Shown here: in pieces, positions 11,672 through 31,621 of the stretch
Layout: the number at the start of each line of letters is the position of its first letter
Numbering within the stretch: position 1 is the first letter of the stretch
From: a virus
Length of the DNA stretch: 36,676 bases
Reading direction: 5' to 3' (one strand)
Virus record (IMG/VR): IMGVR_UViG_3300043568_000021
Span: 1-36,676 of that record
Notes under the pieces: model-generated
The model's database searches: none
Seen by the model: the letters and a program-made list of their open reading frames with translations, nothing else
Told to the model about the DNA's origin: nothing
Position numbers and translations under genes: made by a program

Positions 11672-11905
11672 ATGGCTGATGTAAACGATAAAGAAGCTTG
11701 TAATTCTTGTCGATTTTTTTCTTTAGGCGATAGGGGCATGGGAATGTGCCAAAGATATCCTGCCGCAATAAACGCATCTAGCAATGGCTGGTGCGGTGAA
11801 TTTTCAATTTCTAGTCCTGCATTTCAAGCTTTAGTACAGTCTATGTCTGAGCCAATGGTTATTCCTGAAGTTAAAAAATCAAGAGGAAGGCCAAAAAAAG
11901 CATGA
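11672..11905 (+). CDS. Cys4 (zinc-ribbon-like) protein with C-terminal AT-hook
   Basis: This 77-residue protein has cysteines at 10, 13, 26 and 41 (CNSC, MC, WCGEF), spaced as in a small zinc site, and ends KKSRGRPKKA, a textbook AT-hook (RGRP core) for A+T minor-groove binding. The N-terminal pattern 'C.SCRFF....G.C.RYPA...WCGEF' is frequent in small phage and bacterial proteins. A DNA-binding or regulatory role on this A+T-rich genome is plausible. GGAG lies eight bases before the ATG; the stop overlaps the GroES start. Confidence 0.65.
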   Translation: MADVNDKEACNSCRFFSLGDRGMGMCQRYPAAINASSNGWCGEFSISSPAFQALVQSMSEPMVIPEVKKSRGRPKKA

Positions 11906-12213
11906 AATTAACGCCAATGAACGACAAAATTGTTGTAAAGCCTGATGTTAGAAAGCTTTCCAGCGTAATTATTGTTAATAACAAAGAAGTAGAAAACATG
12001 GGCACAGTTATAGCTGTAGGTCCTGGCAAAAAGCTACCAAATGGGCGCAGAGAAGATATGCCTGTTGAAGTGGGTGCAAGAATTCGCTTTGGCACTATGA
12101 ATGACGACCATGGCGAAGAATATCTAAAATACTTTAAATACGAAGAAAATGGCACAAAATACCTAGTCATGAGCTGGCAAGACGTTTGTTTTGTGGAAGA
12201 ACAAAATGTTTAA
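11902..12213 (+). CDS. Phage GroES-like co-chaperonin
   Basis: This 103-residue protein aligns with GroES through its length: TPMNDKIVVKPD (4-15, cf. RPLHDRVIVK), a mobile-loop region with hydrophobic SVIIV (21-25), MGTVIAVGPGKKLPNG (33-48), MPVEVGARIRFG (53-64) and KYLVMSWQDVCFV (86-98). GroES caps GroEL and closes its folding chamber. A phage version may help fold the coat protein, as T4 gp31 and RB49 CocO do. The mobile loop lacks the usual GG before the hydrophobic triplet. It overlaps both neighbours. Confidence 0.85.
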   Translation: MKLTPMNDKIVVKPDVRKLSSVIIVNNKEVENMGTVIAVGPGKKLPNGRREDMPVEVGARIRFGTMNDDHGEEYLKYFKYEENGTKYLVMSWQDVCFVEEQNV

Positions 12214-12545: not shown

Positions 12546-12824
12546 ATGGCTACCAAAAAACAAGACAAACCTATTGCAAGAACAACTACCGGCAAGGGTA
12601 AAAATTACAATCCTACTGAAAAAGGTGCTGGAATGACCGCTAAGGGTAGGGCTGAATACAACGCCAAAAACAATGCAAACCTAAAGCCGCCAGCACCAAA
12701 TCCTAAGACCAAGGCAGATGAAGGCCGTAAAAAGTCGTTTTGTGCTCGGATGGAAGGCGTGGTCAAAAACGCTAAAGGCCCTGCGGAAAGAGCCAAAGCA
12801 TCACTTAAAAATTGGAATTGTTAA
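12546..12824 (+). CDS. Conserved small basic phage protein (DUF6321-like)
   Basis: This 92-residue protein contains GAGMTAKGRAEYN (28-40), LKPPAPNPKTKADEGRKKS, and FCARMEGVVKNAKGP..RAKASLKNWNC at the end. The 'KGLTAKGRA.Y...LK...........RRKSFCARM.GV....A..R...SL.KWNC' pattern is found in many aquatic phages (I recall DUF6321). Highly basic, with no known activity. It starts two bases after the stop of the previous basic protein, and the two are often neighbours. Confidence 0.7.
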   Translation: MATKKQDKPIARTTTGKGKNYNPTEKGAGMTAKGRAEYNAKNNANLKPPAPNPKTKADEGRKKSFCARMEGVVKNAKGPAERAKASLKNWNC

Positions 12825-12826
12825 AA

Positions 12827-12988
12827 ATGATTAAATTAGAGTTAACCATTGAGGAAATTAACTACATTCTTATGTCTGTAGGCAAAAATCCTTATGCTGA
12901 ATGCGCACCTTTGGTAAACAAAATCCACGCACAAGCACAGCCACAGGTACAAACTAAGGCAGAGGCATCTGATGAAAGCCAAGGTTAA
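12827..12988 (+). CDS. Conserved 53-residue phage protein
   Basis: The frame encodes MIKLELTIEEINYILMSVGK...PLVNKIHAQAQPQVQ and a polar tail. Small phage proteins starting 'MKLELTVEEVN.IL..LG..P......L..KI..QAQPQ' are widespread beside terminase-proximal genes. It has one amphipathic helix pair and no known function. It starts two bases after the previous stop and overlaps the ParB-like gene by 17 bases. Confidence 0.7.
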   Translation: MIKLELTIEEINYILMSVGKNPYAECAPLVNKIHAQAQPQVQTKAEASDESQG

Positions 12989-13625
12989 TGCTTCTCAGAT
13001 AGTTAAAATTGATACATTAAAGAACCACGATAGGAATTATCGTGAGCACCATGACGACCAAATAGCTCATTTAATGCAAAGTATTAAGCAAAATGGGTTT
13101 TATAAGAACATTGTGGTTGCCCAAGACAATACTATTTTGGCTGGACACGGCATTATTAAAGCCGCTCGTAAGCTAGGTATGACCGAAATAAGTATTATCA
13201 AGCTGGACATTGATCCTGAAAGTCCACAAGCTTTAAAGATATTAGCTGGTGATAACGAAGTAGGTCGATTAGCTGAAATAGATGATAGATCATTATCAGA
13301 AATTCTTAAAAAGGTTAAAGACGACGATATAGATGGTCTTTTGGGTACTGGTTACGATGAAATGATGTTGGCTAACTTGGTTATGGTTACTCGACATGGC
13401 AAAGAAATAGCTAATATTAACGAAGCGGCTGAATGGGTAGGTATGCCTGACTACCAAGCCAAGGAAGATCCTATAAAAATTGCTATTCAGTTTAGGTCTG
13501 AAGAAGATAGGGAGCAATTTGCTACATTAACCAAAATGAAAATGGGTAAAGAAGGCGGCACGACTTGGTCTTGCTGGTGGCCACCTAGGGAAAACGAGGA
13601 CATTTCATCCGTAAAGTATGAATAA
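12972..13625 (+). CDS. ParB/Srx-fold nuclease-like protein
   Basis: This 217-residue protein carries a ParB N-terminal-type domain at about 8-100: QIVKIDTLKNHDRNYREH, IAHLMQSIKQNGFYKNIVV, NTILAGHGIIKAARKLGM and KLDID, then a helical part and a C-terminal region with WSCWWPP. Members of this superfamily are CTPases, nucleases or sulfiredoxin-like; stand-alone phage copies often lie beside terminase and DNA-modification genes. No HTH or ParA partner is seen, so plasmid-like partition is unlikely. GAGG is six bases before the ATG. It overlaps the glycosyltransferase gene by eight bases. Confidence 0.75.
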   Translation: MKAKVNASQIVKIDTLKNHDRNYREHHDDQIAHLMQSIKQNGFYKNIVVAQDNTILAGHGIIKAARKLGMTEISIIKLDIDPESPQALKILAGDNEVGRLAEIDDRSLSEILKKVKDDDIDGLLGTGYDEMMLANLVMVTRHGKEIANINEAAEWVGMPDYQAKEDPIKIAIQFRSEEDREQFATLTKMKMGKEGGTTWSCWWPPRENEDISSVKYE

Positions 13626-14496
13626 GCCTGAGTATCCTATTTATGTCATATCTAAAGGTAGGCACGACTGTTGCTTAACGGCTAAATTCTTTGTAGAAGA
13701 TGGCGTGGATTTTAAAATAGTTGTAGAACCACAAGAAAAACAGCTTTATGCTGACATTTATGGTGTAGATAAGATATTAGTCCTGCCTTTTCAAAATTTA
13801 GGACTTGGCAGTATTCCAGCTAGGAATTGGTGCTGGGAACATTCTAAGGAAGCTGGACACGCTAGGCATTGGATATTTGACGATAACATTGCTATGGTGC
13901 GTAGGCTACATAAAGGCAAACGCATACGCTGTAACACCAATATAGCTTTAAAAGCGGCAGAAGACTTTATTAATCGTTATGAAAATATAGCCATTGGTGG
14001 GTTAAATTACACATTCTTTGCGGTAGGCAAAAAGCCACCATTTAACCTTAATGTCCATGTTTACAGTTGTCTATGTATAAAGAACGATCTAGACTATCGT
14101 TGGAGAGGTAGATATAACGAGGACACCGATTTATGCCTACAAGTACTAAGTGGCGGTTGGTGTACCGTGTTATTCAATGCTTTCCTAATAGATAAAATGG
14201 CTACCATGACTATGAAAGGTGGTAATGCCGATGTTCTTTATAAAGGTGATGGCAGATTAAAGATGGCTAGGTCGCTGGAAAGACTATGGCCGGGTGTAGT
14301 TACAGTTAATCGTAGGTTTGATAGACCACAACACATTATTAAAGATGCTTGGGGAAAGTTTGACACAGAGCTAATACGCCGTAAGGATATAGACTGGGAA
14401 GAAGTAGCTAAAAAAAGTTATGAAATTAAACTAAAGCAAGTTAAAGCTGAAGTAAAAAGCGAAGAATTAAAGGAAATGCTAAAAAATGCAACTTGA
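13618..14496 (+). CDS. TET-associated-type glycosyltransferase (TAGT-like, GT-A fold)
   Basis: This 292-residue protein starts PIYVISKGRHD (7-17), then VVEPQEK (35-41), IPARNWCWEHS (66-76), HWIFDDNIAMVRR (84-96, Asp88-Asp89 as the probable metal motif), and GRYNEDTDLCLQVLSGG (164-180). This order fits GT-A glycosyltransferases of the TAGT group, predicted to glycosylate oxidised methyl-pyrimidines in phage DNA. A ParB-like gene precedes it and the terminase pair follows, an arrangement I recall for TAGT loci. No TET/JBP oxygenase or DNA methylase is seen here, so the substrate is open. It could also modify a different base or a protein. Confidence 0.7.
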   Translation: MNKPEYPIYVISKGRHDCCLTAKFFVEDGVDFKIVVEPQEKQLYADIYGVDKILVLPFQNLGLGSIPARNWCWEHSKEAGHARHWIFDDNIAMVRRLHKGKRIRCNTNIALKAAEDFINRYENIAIGGLNYTFFAVGKKPPFNLNVHVYSCLCIKNDLDYRWRGRYNEDTDLCLQVLSGGWCTVLFNAFLIDKMATMTMKGGNADVLYKGDGRLKMARSLERLWPGVVTVNRRFDRPQHIIKDAWGKFDTELIRRKDIDWEEVAKKSYEIKLKQVKAEVKSEELKEMLKNAT

Positions 14497-14893
14497 AAAA
14501 GATACGCTTAAAAAGGAATGGGGCGGTTCTCGTGAAAATTCGGGTAGAGAAGCCTTTATTCCGACTGAAGATGAAAAAGCCCAAGTAGAGCTATTAAGTG
14601 GTTATGGGCTACCTTTCGACCAAATTTGCTCGGTAATTCGTAATGGTATTAGCTTGGCTACATTAAGGCGGCATTTCCCTGATGAGTTGGTAAAGGGTAA
14701 AGCTAAAGCCAATGCCCAAGTAGGTCGTGGATTGTTCCAAAAAGCCATGGCTGGTGATACAACGGCTATGATTTGGTGGACTAAAAGCCAAATGAAGTGG
14801 TCTGAAACAGTAAAACAAGAACTTACTGGGGCTGAAGGCAAAGAATTAACTGGTATTCAGGTTACTTTTGTAAAGCCAAATGAATCAGCCTAG
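14486..14893 (+). CDS. Putative small terminase subunit
   Basis: This 135-residue protein has an HTH-like region at about 35-65 (GLPFDQICSVIRNGISLATLRRHF) and a helical part with AKANAQVGRGLFQKAMAGDT and TKSQMKWSE. The 'G(L)FQKA..GDT.A.I.W.K...KWSE' stretch recurs in small phage proteins directly before large terminase genes. It probably recognises the packaging site and hands DNA to TerL. It overlaps the upstream gene by 11 bases and TerL by 14. Confidence 0.7.
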   Translation: MQLEKDTLKKEWGGSRENSGREAFIPTEDEKAQVELLSGYGLPFDQICSVIRNGISLATLRRHFPDELVKGKAKANAQVGRGLFQKAMAGDTTAMIWWTKSQMKWSETVKQELTGAEGKELTGIQVTFVKPNESA

Positions 14894-16166
14894 TAATAAA
14901 CTTAAGGAACTCGTCTCTAAAGTTGAGTTTCCTGAAAAGCTCTCCATCCTTTTTGATCCTGCTCGTTACAAAGTTCTTTATGGCGGTCGTGGTGGGGCTA
15001 AGTCTTGGGGCATTGCTAGGGCTTTGCTTATTACTGCTGCTATGCAACCTACTCGTATCCTTTGTGCTCGAGAGTTTCAAACTTCTATTAAAGATTCGGT
15101 TCATAAGCTATTAAGCGACCAAATCTACGCAATGGAGCTAGATGCTCATTTTGAGATTACTCAAAACTCTATTCGTGGCAAAAATGGCTCAGAATTTGCT
15201 TTTGTAGGATTAAAAAACAATATTGCCAATGTTAAGTCCTATGAGGGTGTGGATATATGCTGGGTAGAAGAAGCCAATACCACCAGTAAATTAAGCTGGT
15301 CGGTGCTTATTCCTACCATTCGTAAGGAAAAGTCCGAGATATGGATATCTTTTAACCCTGAATTAGAAACTGATGAGACTTATCAACGCTTTGTAGCCAA
15401 TCCACCTAGTGATTGCTTGATTGTTAAGGTAAATTGGCAAGACAATCCGTGGTTTCCTGAGACTTTAAGGCTTGAAAAGGATGCTTTATTCGTTAGAGAT
15501 AGAGAATCCTACAACACAGTTTGGGAAGGAATGTGCCGTCAGACCGTGGATGGCGCTATTTTTGCCAAAGAAATGCAACAAGCTGAATTTGATGGCAGGA
15601 TCACAAGAGTACCTTACGATGCCACAAAGCCAGTTTTAGCCATTTTTGACATTGGCTGGTCGGATGCAACAGCTGTATGGTTTTTACAATTTGTTGGCAT
15701 GGAAACACGCTTAATACGATATTACGAAACAAATCAAACTACCATGAGTGACATATTAGCCAAAATGCAAACATTTGGTTATGTTTACGACACGCTTTAT
15801 TTGCCACATGATGCTCAAAATAAGACTTTAGCCGCCAATGGCAGAAGCATTGAGGATATTGTTAGGGCGGCAGGCTTTAATGTACGGATTATTGACCGAG
15901 TGCCTATTGCGGACTCTATTAATGCGGCAAGGACAATCTTTAGCAAATGCTATTTTGATAGAGAAAATTGTTACGAAGGTCTACAATGTTTAAGGCATTA
16001 TCGGTATGATACTGATCCTGAAACAGGAGCTTTTAGTCGTAAACCATTACATGACAACTTTTCACATGGTGCTGATGCTTTTAGATACATTGGTTTAATG
16101 ATTAATGAGCCAAAAAAGAAAATAATTAAGAAAATAAATTACCAAGTTTCAGGCTGGATGTCTTAA
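14880..16166 (+). CDS. terL: Terminase large subunit (PBSX/Terminase_3 type)
   Basis: This 428-residue packaging motor has an ATPase domain with Walker A GGRGGAKS (35-42), Walker B VDICWVEEA (124-132) and coupling motif SFNP (157-160), and an RNase H-like nuclease domain with FDIGWSDATAV (256-266, Asp257), LPHDAQNKT (308-316, Asp311) and HGADAFRY (396-403, Asp399). Length and motifs match the XtmB/PBSX family. It pumps DNA into the prohead through the portal encoded next door. The gene overlaps the small subunit and ends 31 bases before portal. Confidence 0.95.
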   Translation: MNQPSNKLKELVSKVEFPEKLSILFDPARYKVLYGGRGGAKSWGIARALLITAAMQPTRILCAREFQTSIKDSVHKLLSDQIYAMELDAHFEITQNSIRGKNGSEFAFVGLKNNIANVKSYEGVDICWVEEANTTSKLSWSVLIPTIRKEKSEIWISFNPELETDETYQRFVANPPSDCLIVKVNWQDNPWFPETLRLEKDALFVRDRESYNTVWEGMCRQTVDGAIFAKEMQQAEFDGRITRVPYDATKPVLAIFDIGWSDATAVWFLQFVGMETRLIRYYETNQTTMSDILAKMQTFGYVYDTLYLPHDAQNKTLAANGRSIEDIVRAAGFNVRIIDRVPIADSINAARTIFSKCYFDRENCYEGLQCLRHYRYDTDPETGAFSRKPLHDNFSHGADAFRYIGLMINEPKKKIIKKINYQVSGWMS

Positions 16167-25542: not shown

Positions 25543-25956
25543 ATGAGTCATTTTGCAAAAGTAGTAGACGGTAAAGTAACGCAAGTTATCGTAGCCGAAC
25601 AAGAGTTTTTTAATACATTTGTAGACAGCTCGCCTGGTCAATGGATTCAAACTTCCTACAATACTCGTGGTGGTGTTCATTACGAACCTAACAGCGATAC
25701 GCCAAGCGCAGATCAAACAAAGGCGTTGCGTAAAAACTACGCTGGTATCGGTTACCTGTATGATGCCCAACGTGATGCGTTTATTTCACCACAACCATTT
25801 AATTCATGGTTACTTGACGAGCAAACCTGTTTTTGGAATCCTCCAGTACCTTGCCCTGAAACTGGCGGCCCTTACAAATGGAATGAGCAAACCAAAACTT
25901 GGGTTTTAATGCCTATTCCATCAGATAATGCTATTCCGACAACTGTTGCTGAATAA
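25543..25956 (+). CDS. Conserved tail-region protein
   Basis: This 137-residue protein starts SHFAKVVDGKVTQVIVAEQEF and contains WIQTSYNTRGG, LRKNYAGIGYLYDAQRDAF, PQPFNSWLLDEQTCFWNPP and YKWNEQTKTWV. The pattern is very common in cyanophages and other aquatic phages next to fibre genes, and I recognise it as a conserved hypothetical protein. It is soluble, with no signal. It may be a fibre assembly or virion surface protein. It overlaps the cupin gene start (TAATG). Confidence 0.7.
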   Translation: MSHFAKVVDGKVTQVIVAEQEFFNTFVDSSPGQWIQTSYNTRGGVHYEPNSDTPSADQTKALRKNYAGIGYLYDAQRDAFISPQPFNSWLLDEQTCFWNPPVPCPETGGPYKWNEQTKTWVLMPIPSDNAIPTTVAE

Positions 25957-26276
25957 TGACAAGTCCATTAATAAAGCTTGGATGCGTTGCTAATGTTTAT
26001 AGCAGAATGATGCACTTTGAAAAAAATGGCGATATTGAAATTGGTCATAAACACCAATTTGACCATTTAACTTTATTAGCTTCAGGCTCTTTAAAAGTAA
26101 ATATTGAAGGTCAAGAATCTATTTTTAAAGCTCCTCACATGATTTATATTCATAAAGATAAGATTCATGAATTGACAGCATTAGAAGATAATACTGTTGC
26201 ATATTGTATTCATGCTTTAAGAGATCAATATACAGGCGAAATTCTTGATCCAAGCATGATTCCTAAAAGTGCATAA
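25956..26276 (+). CDS. Cupin-domain protein
   Basis: This 106-residue protein has a single cupin-like beta barrel: IGHKHQFDHLTLLASGSLKV (29-48) with His30, His32 and His36 as candidate metal ligands, and YIHKDKIHELTAL with further histidines. The usual cupin motif 1 glutamate is absent. The family holds metal-dependent enzymes and sugar-binding proteins; RmlC-like sugar epimerases share the fold. Such genes occur between fibre genes in related phages. Whether it alters a sugar, binds the fibre or is in the virion is unknown. Confidence 0.7.
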   Translation: MTSPLIKLGCVANVYSRMMHFEKNGDIEIGHKHQFDHLTLLASGSLKVNIEGQESIFKAPHMIYIHKDKIHELTALEDNTVAYCIHALRDQYTGEILDPSMIPKSA

Positions 26277-30915: not shown

Positions 30916-31157
30916 TGGCTGTAAATCAAATCTTTGTTGGAAATACTGCAAATCCTTTGCCCCAAACTGATTTTTTGGAACAACAGCCTATTAATAGGCC
31001 CACTAGAGCTTGGATTCAGTTTTTCCTTAATATGATGAATAACACATCAGCCGCTACTGCTACGGCTGGATCAGCTACTTTGCCAGCCAATCCAGTAGGC
31101 TTTATGAATGTGACGATTGATGGTAAACCCTATAAAGTGCCTTATTACAATCCATGA
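30915..31157 (+). CDS. Small conserved protein in the ejection cluster
   Basis: This 80-residue protein contains PINRPTRAWIQFFLNMMN and ends ATAGSATLPANPVGFMNVTIDGKPYKVPYYNP. The terminal 'LP..P.GF....I.G...KVPYYN' is frequent in small proteins next to podoviral tail genes. It sits where P22 has the needle gene 26 but is far shorter and not coiled. It may be a minor tail component. AAGGAG is seven bases before the ATG, which overlaps the previous stop. Confidence 0.65.
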   Translation: MAVNQIFVGNTANPLPQTDFLEQQPINRPTRAWIQFFLNMMNNTSAATATAGSATLPANPVGFMNVTIDGKPYKVPYYNP

Positions 31158-31621
31158 TTACATATAAAGTTGATGATTGGATGGAAAATTTGCCTAAATT
31201 TAAGGCAATTATTGGGCATCATTATGAAGAAGTAGAAACATTAAAAGATTTTGGCTTAAATATTGATTACGATACTTACGAAACTCTTTATGACAATAAA
31301 AAGCTGGTATTCATATCAGCCAAAGATGGCGATGAATTAGTTGGATATATTGTGTTTTTTGTAATGCCTCATTTGCATTACAAGAATTGTTTAACGGCCC
31401 ATGAAGATTTGTATTTTCTTCAGCCTGAATACAGAAAAGGTTTTAACGGCATCAGAATGTTTAGGTTTGCACAAGAATATTTAAAAAGCATTGGAGTAGA
31501 TTTAATTATTTATGCCACTAAATTTGGCTTTGATAATTCTAGTATTTTTAAATATTTAGGTTGTGAGCCAATGGATAAAGTATTTACTAAATTGTTGCAA
31601 CAGCCGATAATTAGGCATTAG
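31154..31621 (+). CDS. GNAT-like acetyltransferase
   Basis: This 155-residue protein resembles the GNAT fold: beta strands KLVFISAKDGDELVGYIVFF (50-69), then EDLYFLQPEYRKGFNGIRMF (84-103) covering the acetyl-CoA loop (R94-K-G-F-N-G), a helix, and LIIYATKFGFDNSSIFKYLGC (117-137). Phage GNATs are found in the middle of virion gene clusters of aquatic podoviruses, and some are packaged. The target is unknown. It is coupled to its neighbour by an ATGA overlap. Confidence 0.7.
   Translation: MITYKVDDWMENLPKFKAIIGHHYEEVETLKDFGLNIDYDTYETLYDNKKLVFISAKDGDELVGYIVFFVMPHLHYKNCLTAHEDLYFLQPEYRKGFNGIRMFRFAQEYLKSIGVDLIIYATKFGFDNSSIFKYLGCEPMDKVFTKLLQQPIIRH

What the first reader, a model, noticed from the sequence alone, without database searches (positions are those of the whole stretch)
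12972..14496. ParB-like plus TAGT-type glycosyltransferase without a TET/JBP oxygenase
TAGT-type glycosyltransferases were predicted to act on bases oxidised by TET/JBP enzymes, and ParB-like proteins are often neighbours. Here the pair lies directly before the terminase genes, but no oxygenase, hydroxymethylase or methylase is visible. Either a host-made or unknown base is modified, the enzyme acts on another substrate, or a diverged partner is among the unknown genes. This could be an uncharacterised DNA-protection system.
Basis: partly seen in the sequence, partly recalled or inferred. Interest (0 to 1): 0.7.

Follow-up and report, generated by a model that had tools for sequence, protein, structure and literature searches.

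The report
Phage glycosyltransferase with unnamed partner domain
A small virus of bacteria carries a sugar-adding enzyme of a DNA-modifying family without the oxidising enzyme thought to prepare its target; instead, here and in about 140 other loci, the enzyme travels with a small unnamed protein domain, and the version joined to a ParB-like DNA-clamp domain almost always sits just ahead of the virus's DNA-packaging genes.

Summary
The pair is real. ORF 12972-13625 has a ParB N-domain; ORF 13618-14496 is a strong TAGT glycosyltransferase (PF20691, 7.6e-49). The genes overlap each other and the small terminase gene. No TET/JBP oxygenase, hydroxymethylase or DNA methylase was found in the window. 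This is typical of a large TAGT clade. Its constant partner is a ~70-aa domain ("D"), which no Pfam, NCBIfam or PHROG model matched; in the window it is the ParB protein's C-terminus. D also occurs alone beside TAGT, fused to TAGT, in one ParB-D-TAGT polypeptide, and in a D-TAGT-DNA-polymerase-A polypeptide. A D-only query found 41 loci, all with TAGT adjacent or fused. The ParB-D form has the large terminase gene within 4 kb downstream in 52 of 53 loci; without ParB the figure is 2 of 28, both truncated ParB loci. Conserved catalytic residues, a GT-A model and dN/dS of 0.02-0.07 indicate working genes. I infer a partner-guided glycosyltransferase acting on phage DNA, probably sparsely and near packaging. 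Bulk protection looks unlikely: the genome still avoids restriction palindromes as strongly as a sister genome lacking the cassette. Substrate and sugar are unproven. The 2026 literature already notes solitary TAGTs.

The parts
12972..13625 (+). ParB_N + domain D protein (217 aa): ParB/sulfiredoxin-like N-domain about aa 9-125, domain D aa 149-217
   Evidence: Pfam ParB_N 6.9e-6; model pLDDT 81, Foldseek to ParB/Noc/KorB; domain D profile 1e-23 at 149-217
13416..13622 (+). coding part of domain D (motif W-GMP ... W/F-x-W-[WYF]-P), which no Pfam, NCBIfam or PHROG model matched as a domain
   Evidence: alignments A1, A3; no family match for the D sequences tried
13618..14496 (+). TAGT-family GT-A glycosyltransferase (292 aa); conserved DDN (aa 88-90) and NED (aa 167-169)
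   Evidence: PF20691 7.6e-49; invariant D88 D89 D169 G201 G202 in 39 sequences; AF2 model pLDDT 87.9, GT-A neighbours
14486..14893 (+). terminase small subunit (overlaps TAGT by 11 bases)
   Evidence: phrog_309 2.7e-13
14880..16166 (+). terminase large subunit
   Evidence: Terminase_3 2.4e-39

Best explanation
ParB-D and TAGT form a two-gene glycosyltransferase module. TAGT is a GT-A enzyme that transfers a sugar from a nucleotide sugar. Domain D is its dedicated partner, most likely positioning the enzyme on its acceptor. In this phage D is carried by a ParB-type clamp-fold domain, which would load or recruit the enzyme onto phage DNA, and the module is made together with the terminase. The acceptor is most likely phage DNA, modified sparsely or near the packaging start or ends rather than genome-wide; it does not depend on a phage-encoded TET or hydroxymethylase. 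Shown: gene identities, D-TAGT partnership (adjacency and fusions), ParB-terminase linkage, purifying selection, conserved catalytic residues, absence of known acceptor-making enzymes, strong palindrome avoidance. Inferred: DNA as acceptor, recruitment by D and ParB, timing at packaging, sugar identity.
For: Partnership: a D-only query fetched 41 viral loci and all 41 carry TAGT next door or fused. Of 107 TAGT loci, 100 have D; the exceptions are 5 contigs cut off where D is expected and the TET-type Nonlabens phage (two loci). 41 of 45 bacterial-genome loci, mostly prophage-like, also have D. Fusions: D-TAGT in Aeh1, phiAS5, 65, POP12, PTm1, Kuja and Vibrio phages; ParB_N-D-TAGT in one ORF of L146 followed by TerS and TerL; D-TAGT-DNA polymerase A in one ORF of L113 (DNA_pol_A 6.9e-50, TAGT 4e-42), which points to DNA. 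Relatives of this ParB domain are fused to DNA methyltransferases (phrog_498, 9.3e-27) and sit beside TET (HTVC112P). Terminase: TerL within 4 kb downstream in 57 of 91 loci, upstream in 4 of 97; ParB-D loci 52 of 53, D alone 2 of 19 (both cut-off ParB loci), D-TAGT fusions 0 of 9; clusters at 70% identity 25:1 against 1:21, Fisher 2e-11. Acceptor enzymes absent. Not bulk.
Against: No biochemical evidence for any acceptor or donor. No hydroxylated base source is known, so the chemistry on DNA is unexplained. Vibrio phage 1.076.O has D-TAGT inside its head operon between portal and head-morphogenesis genes, which also suits a protein acceptor. ParB-like domains may simply be common near terminases, so the linkage may reflect a cargo site. 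Tree support for repeated co-gain of ParB and terminase linkage is limited: 3 independent pairs on well-supported branches, sign test not significant. One locus (L171, Winogradskyella) has D-TAGT close to a TET gene. Domain D is poorly modelled (pLDDT about 55-82).
Confidence: 0.5

Rival explanations
1. The module glycosylates a protein of the virion or packaging machine (TerS, portal, coat, tail) or a host protein, not DNA.
For: Position among late packaging and head genes in the window and in 1.076.O; GT-A fold close to protein and polymer glycosyltransferases such as COLGALT1, LARGE and TarP; no base-oxidising enzyme in any close relative but one; no sign of bulk DNA protection.
Against: ParB fold and its ties to DNA methyltransferases and TET; D-TAGT fused to DNA polymerase A in L113; T6 TAGT acts on glucosylated hmC in DNA (PMC13216743); in some T4-like phages the module sits among replication and nucleotide genes.
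Confidence: 0.22
2. Genome-wide DNA hypermodification protecting against restriction, on a host-made or unknown base.
For: Family precedent: TET-linked and T-even TAGTs; sugar-nucleotide genes (epimerase, UDP-glucose dehydrogenase type) directly after D-TAGT in T4-like contigs L045 and L050.
Against: Window, L003 and L004 genomes avoid palindromes about as strongly as the sister without the cassette (6-mer O/E 0.575-0.665 against 0.585), unlike T6 and RB69 (0.92, 0.90). Aeh1 and 65 lack genes 42 and 56 (PMC2993671).
Confidence: 0.15
3. Selfish or accessory cargo: ParB-D-TAGT sits in an insertion hot spot before TerS and acts on something unrelated to packaging, for example host exclusion of other phages.
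For: The sister genome MW202674 has the same gene order but lacks the pair; the same site is used in phages with unrelated terminases.
Against: Strong purifying selection; near-perfect association of the ParB form, and only that form, with terminase.
Confidence: 0.13

Closest known systems
TET/JBP-associated glycosyltransferases (TAGT, PF20691; Nonlabens phage P12024L type)
   Same: Same Pfam family and conserved catalytic core; phage-borne
   Different: Those sit beside TET and lack domain D; they form a separate clade on a long, supported branch. The window type has D and no TET.
T2/T6 beta-glucosyl-HMC-alpha-glucosyltransferase
   Same: Same PHROG (phrog_842) and PF20691 (weak, 3.7e-9)
   Different: T6 has a dCMP-hydroxymethylase-like gene and alpha-GT; no D; distant in sequence
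Solitary TAGTs reported in 288 of 753 phage genomes (PMC13216743)
   Same: TAGT without alpha-GT or beta-GT; the window type is of this sort
   Different: In the passages found that paper does not describe domain D, the ParB fusions or the terminase link
ParB/Noc CTPase-fold proteins; phage ParB-methyltransferase fusions (phrog_498)
   Same: ParB_N fold and sequence
   Different: No helix-turn-helix domain found, no ParA found; C-terminus is domain D, not a methyltransferase
RB69-type arabinosyl-cytosine pathway
   Same: Phage glycosylation of DNA; sugar-nucleotide genes also occur near some D-TAGTs
   Different: RB69 ORF003c, a candidate arabinosyltransferase by its position between rIIA and the topoisomerase gene (inference), has no PF20691 match

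Membership tests
TAGT (PF20691) | profile match over curated cut-off | tested here: met
   166.9 bits against 27.5, positions 1-205 of 205
TAGT (PF20691) | GT-A fold with acidic metal motif and catalytic acid conserved | tested here: met
   D88, D89, D169 invariant in 39 sequences; AF2 model pLDDT 87.9, Foldseek to GT-A enzymes with modest TM about 0.4
TAGT (PF20691) | genomic association with TET/JBP oxygenase | tested here: not met
   no PF12851 in the window or in 94 other records with this TAGT type or close kin
TAGT (PF20691) | glycosylates a modified DNA base | not testable with these tools
   needs biochemistry
T-even hmC glucosylation pathway | phage dCMP hydroxymethylase (thymidylate synthase superfamily) | tested here: not met
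   none in Pfam scans of the window; PF00303 absent from 19 further D-TAGT contigs; large T4-like D-TAGT phages mostly have only ordinary td-like genes, though PTm1 (W08) has a second divergent hit, 1.5e-10
ParB partition protein | ParB_N / sulfiredoxin-like fold | tested here: met
   PF02195 6.9e-6; Foldseek to ParB, Noc, KorB
ParB partition protein | central helix-turn-helix DNA-binding domain and ParA partner | tested here: not met
   no HTH in this protein and no ParA match in Pfam scans of the window; C-terminus is domain D
ParB partition protein | CTP binding and clamping | not tested
   motif reads GHGIIKAA rather than the canonical GERRxRA (my own knowledge of ParB); function unknown
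D-TAGT module (defined here) | domain D adjacent to or fused with TAGT | tested here: met
   D at aa 149-217 of the window ParB, 1e-23; 100 of 107 TAGT loci, 41 of 41 D loci
Bulk anti-restriction DNA hypermodification | relaxed avoidance of restriction palindromes | tested here: not met
   6-mer palindrome O/E 0.575 in the window against 0.92 and 0.90 in T6 and RB69; indirect test, few genomes

The most novel reading that the evidence does not exclude
Packaging-coupled DNA glycosylation: a ParB-type clamp carrying domain D loads a glycosyltransferase onto phage DNA at or near the terminase start or cut site and leaves a sparse, oxidation-independent sugar mark there. The mark would distinguish phage from host DNA for packaging or protect the packaged ends. 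D would be a new class of glycosyltransferase-targeting domain.
Probability: 0.15. Interest if true: 0.88.

Novelty: new variant of a known kind. Interest (0 to 1): 0.57.

Why it matters
TAGT has been read as the last step after base oxidation. Here a large clade, including cultured phages (Aeh1, phiAS5, 65, POP12, PTm1, Kuja, Vibrio 1.076.O) and prophage-like loci of type strains, shows no such step in its genomes but has a fixed partner domain absent from the databases searched. That turns 'unknown base, unknown enzyme' into a defined two-component system that can be expressed and assayed. The near-exclusive link of the ParB form to terminase genes raises a testable connection between DNA marking and packaging. 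The palindrome result warns against assuming that every phage DNA glycosyltransferase is an anti-restriction shield.

Tried and rejected
Hidden oxygenase: PF12851 six-frame search of the window empty at E 10. The only double-stranded-beta-helix candidate, a cupin at 25956-26276 (Cupin_2 5.8e-4, below cut-off), lies among tail genes and was not found in 12 related records, including near relatives that keep TAGT (no positive control in that search). C5-methylase partner: PF00145 in only 4 of 33 records. T6-type pathway: no gp42-like gene in the small phages; large ones mostly ordinary td only. Strict exclusivity of D and TET: mostly true but broken by L171. Several calls were lost to argument errors. 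Iyer et al. 2013 is not in the paper library, so I could not check whether it describes domain D.

Full report
WHAT IS THERE. The window is a 36,676-base IMG/VR virus record with P22-type portal and coat genes. At 12972-13625 lies a 217-aa protein with a ParB N-terminal domain, and at 13618-14496 a 292-aa glycosyltransferase that matches TAGT (PF20691) over the full model at 7.6e-49. The two genes overlap by 8 bases, TAGT overlaps the small terminase gene by 11 and TerS overlaps TerL by 14, the layout of a translationally coupled operon. dN/dS against four relatives is 0.015-0.065 for both genes. R15, E37, R69, W85, D88, D89, E115, D169, G201 and G202 are among the invariant residues of TAGT across 39 relatives. 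The AF2 model (pLDDT 87.9) is GT-A-like, with modest Foldseek matches to COLGALT1, TarP and LARGE. The enzyme therefore looks active and inside the family.

THE MISSING OXYGENASE. No TET/JBP profile match exists in six frames of the window even at E 10, and Pfam scans of nearly all ORFs show no hydroxymethylase or methylase. The absence is general for this kind of TAGT. Of 50 related records only the TET phage Nonlabens P12024L has PF12851; of a further 46 only HTVC112P, included as a TET control, does. Many of these records are fragments. Thymidylate-synthase-type genes, which would include dCMP and dUMP hydroxymethylases, are absent from 19 further D-TAGT contigs; among large T4-like relatives the hits look like ordinary td genes, except for a second divergent hit in PTm1, while T6 has its extra gp42-like copy next to TAGT. 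The literature agrees that Aeh1 and 65 lack genes 42 and 56 (PMC2993671), lists an Aeh1 glucosyl transferase as acting on an 'unknown base' (PMC8056088), and reports no TET/JBP in jumbo phages (PMC7824862).

THE REAL PARTNER: DOMAIN D. The C-terminal ~70 residues of the window ParB protein (149-217; motif W-GMP ... TKSIWYP in relatives, W-GMP ... TTWSCWWP here) form a domain with no Pfam, NCBIfam or PHROG match in the sequences tried. It occurs (a) at the end of one or two ParB_N domains, (b) as a stand-alone 75-120 aa protein, (c) fused in front of TAGT (Aeh1, 65, phiAS5, POP12, PTm1, Kuja, Vibrio 1.076.O and 1.124.O, L048, L052), (d) in a single ParB_N-D-TAGT ORF (L146) followed by TerS and TerL, and (e) in a D-TAGT-DNA polymerase A ORF (L113). 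A D-only query found 41 viral loci and every one has TAGT adjacent or fused. Of 107 TAGT loci, 100 have D; the seven others are five contigs cut off where D is expected and the TET-type Nonlabens phage (two loci). At 60% identity, 18 of 19 TAGT clusters carry D, usually overlapping TAGT by 4-29 bases. In a profile-guided scan of bacterial genomes 41 of 45 loci carry D. By contrast, of 22 loci reached through Nonlabens TET and its TAGT, about half carry TAGT and none carries D. The TET-linked TAGTs form their own supported, long-branched group on the tree. One exception, L171, has D-TAGT fused with TET and a ParB gene nearby.

LINK TO PACKAGING. A TerL gene starts within 4 kb downstream of TAGT in 57 of 91 testable loci and within 4 kb upstream in 4 of 97, with terminases of several unrelated sequences. 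The link is carried by the ParB form: ParB-D loci 52 of 53, stand-alone D 2 of 19 (L007 and L019, both ParB loci cut by the contig end), D-TAGT fusions 0 of 9. Collapsed to 70% clusters the table is 25:1 against 1:21 (Fisher 2e-11). On a TAGT tree of 80% representatives the states are 32 with both, 17 with neither, 2 with ParB only, 0 with terminase only. The traits change 9-10 times by parsimony, but only about 3 changes lie on well-supported branches, so phylogenetic independence is suggestive only. Terminase seeds were chosen by eye from the loci, so the absolute counts are approximate. I did not measure how often any ParB_N gene precedes a terminase. In the syntenic sister genome MW202674 the pair is absent from the same place, so it is accessory.

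MECHANISM. The fusions make D the partner module of TAGT. The ParB fold (Foldseek to ParB, Noc and KorB), whose relatives are fused to DNA methyltransferases (phrog_498) and sit beside TET in HTVC112P, and the polymerase fusion in L113 point to DNA as the place of action. Epimerase and UDP-glucose-dehydrogenase-type genes directly behind D-TAGT in T4-like contigs suggest that the sugar differs between phages; the window phage has none and would use a host nucleotide sugar. These steps are inference; nothing here shows a glycosylated product.

A TEST AGAINST BULK PROTECTION. If the DNA were broadly protected, restriction palindromes should be tolerated. In the window CGCG occurs 0 times against 47 expected, ACGT 3 against 62 and CCGG 4 against 48; 6-base palindromes are at 0.575 of expectation. 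Close TAGT-bearing relatives give 0.588 and 0.665, the sister without the cassette 0.585, and the modified phages T6 and RB69 0.919 and 0.895. The TET+TAGT Nonlabens phage is intermediate (0.759, GGCC 0 against 35), so palindrome loss does not exclude sparse modification. This disfavours a general shield and leaves sparse or site-specific DNA marking, or a non-DNA acceptor.

VERDICT. Solitary TAGTs are already noted in print (288 of 753 phage genomes, PMC13216743), so the kind is known; the D domain, its fusions and the ParB-terminase rule make this a new variant. I could not read Iyer et al. 2013, which may already describe part of the ParB neighbourhood.

Noticed in passing
window 1-36676: Extreme avoidance of CGCG (0 found, 47 expected), ACGT (3/62) and CCGG (4/48); near relatives differ in which site is lost (GATC 0/59 in the L004 contig, TCGA 0/43 in the L023 contig), hinting at different host restriction systems.
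   Followed up: partly
window 25956-26276: Small cupin-like protein among tail genes; not found in 12 related records including near relatives.
   Followed up: yes
window 11902-12213: Phage GroES-like co-chaperonin (Cpn10 4e-11) with no GroEL seen; also present in the sister genome MW202674.
   Followed up: no
window 31154-31621: GNAT acetyltransferase (1.9e-4) inside the tail or ejection-protein gene cluster.
   Followed up: no
window 12546-12824: Lysine-rich DUF6321 protein; relatives also lie near TAGT in the L011-type phages.
   Followed up: no
L109 5032-5985; L031 2075-3358: Radical SAM (SPASM) gene directly after TAGT in L109-L112, and a radical SAM protein (weak B12-binding match) upstream of ParB-D-TAGT in L031: possible unusual acceptor chemistry.
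   Followed up: partly
L074 2882-4189: A DXD-motif glycosyltransferase domain fused in front of ParB_N-D, followed by TAGT and a UDP-xylose-synthase-like epimerase (the epimerase reading is from the sequence by eye).
   Followed up: partly
L065 3903-4103, L066 3900-4100, L062 3852-4031: A second, degenerate D-like small ORF directly after the D-TAGT fusion in Aeromonas and Pectobacterium phages; D may work as a pair.
   Followed up: no
L137 4375-5909: Pelagibacter phage HTVC112P has ParB directly followed by TET (no D), so ParB may serve as a shared adaptor of several DNA-modification genes.
   Followed up: partly
L156 4190-6250: Erwinia prophage-like locus: three further genes (one glycosyltransferase-like and one methyltransferase-like by eye) directly upstream of ParB-D-TAGT and terminase.
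   Followed up: no
L060 2500-5927: In Vibrio phage Kuja two D-TAGT genes directly follow the DNA end protector gene.
   Followed up: no
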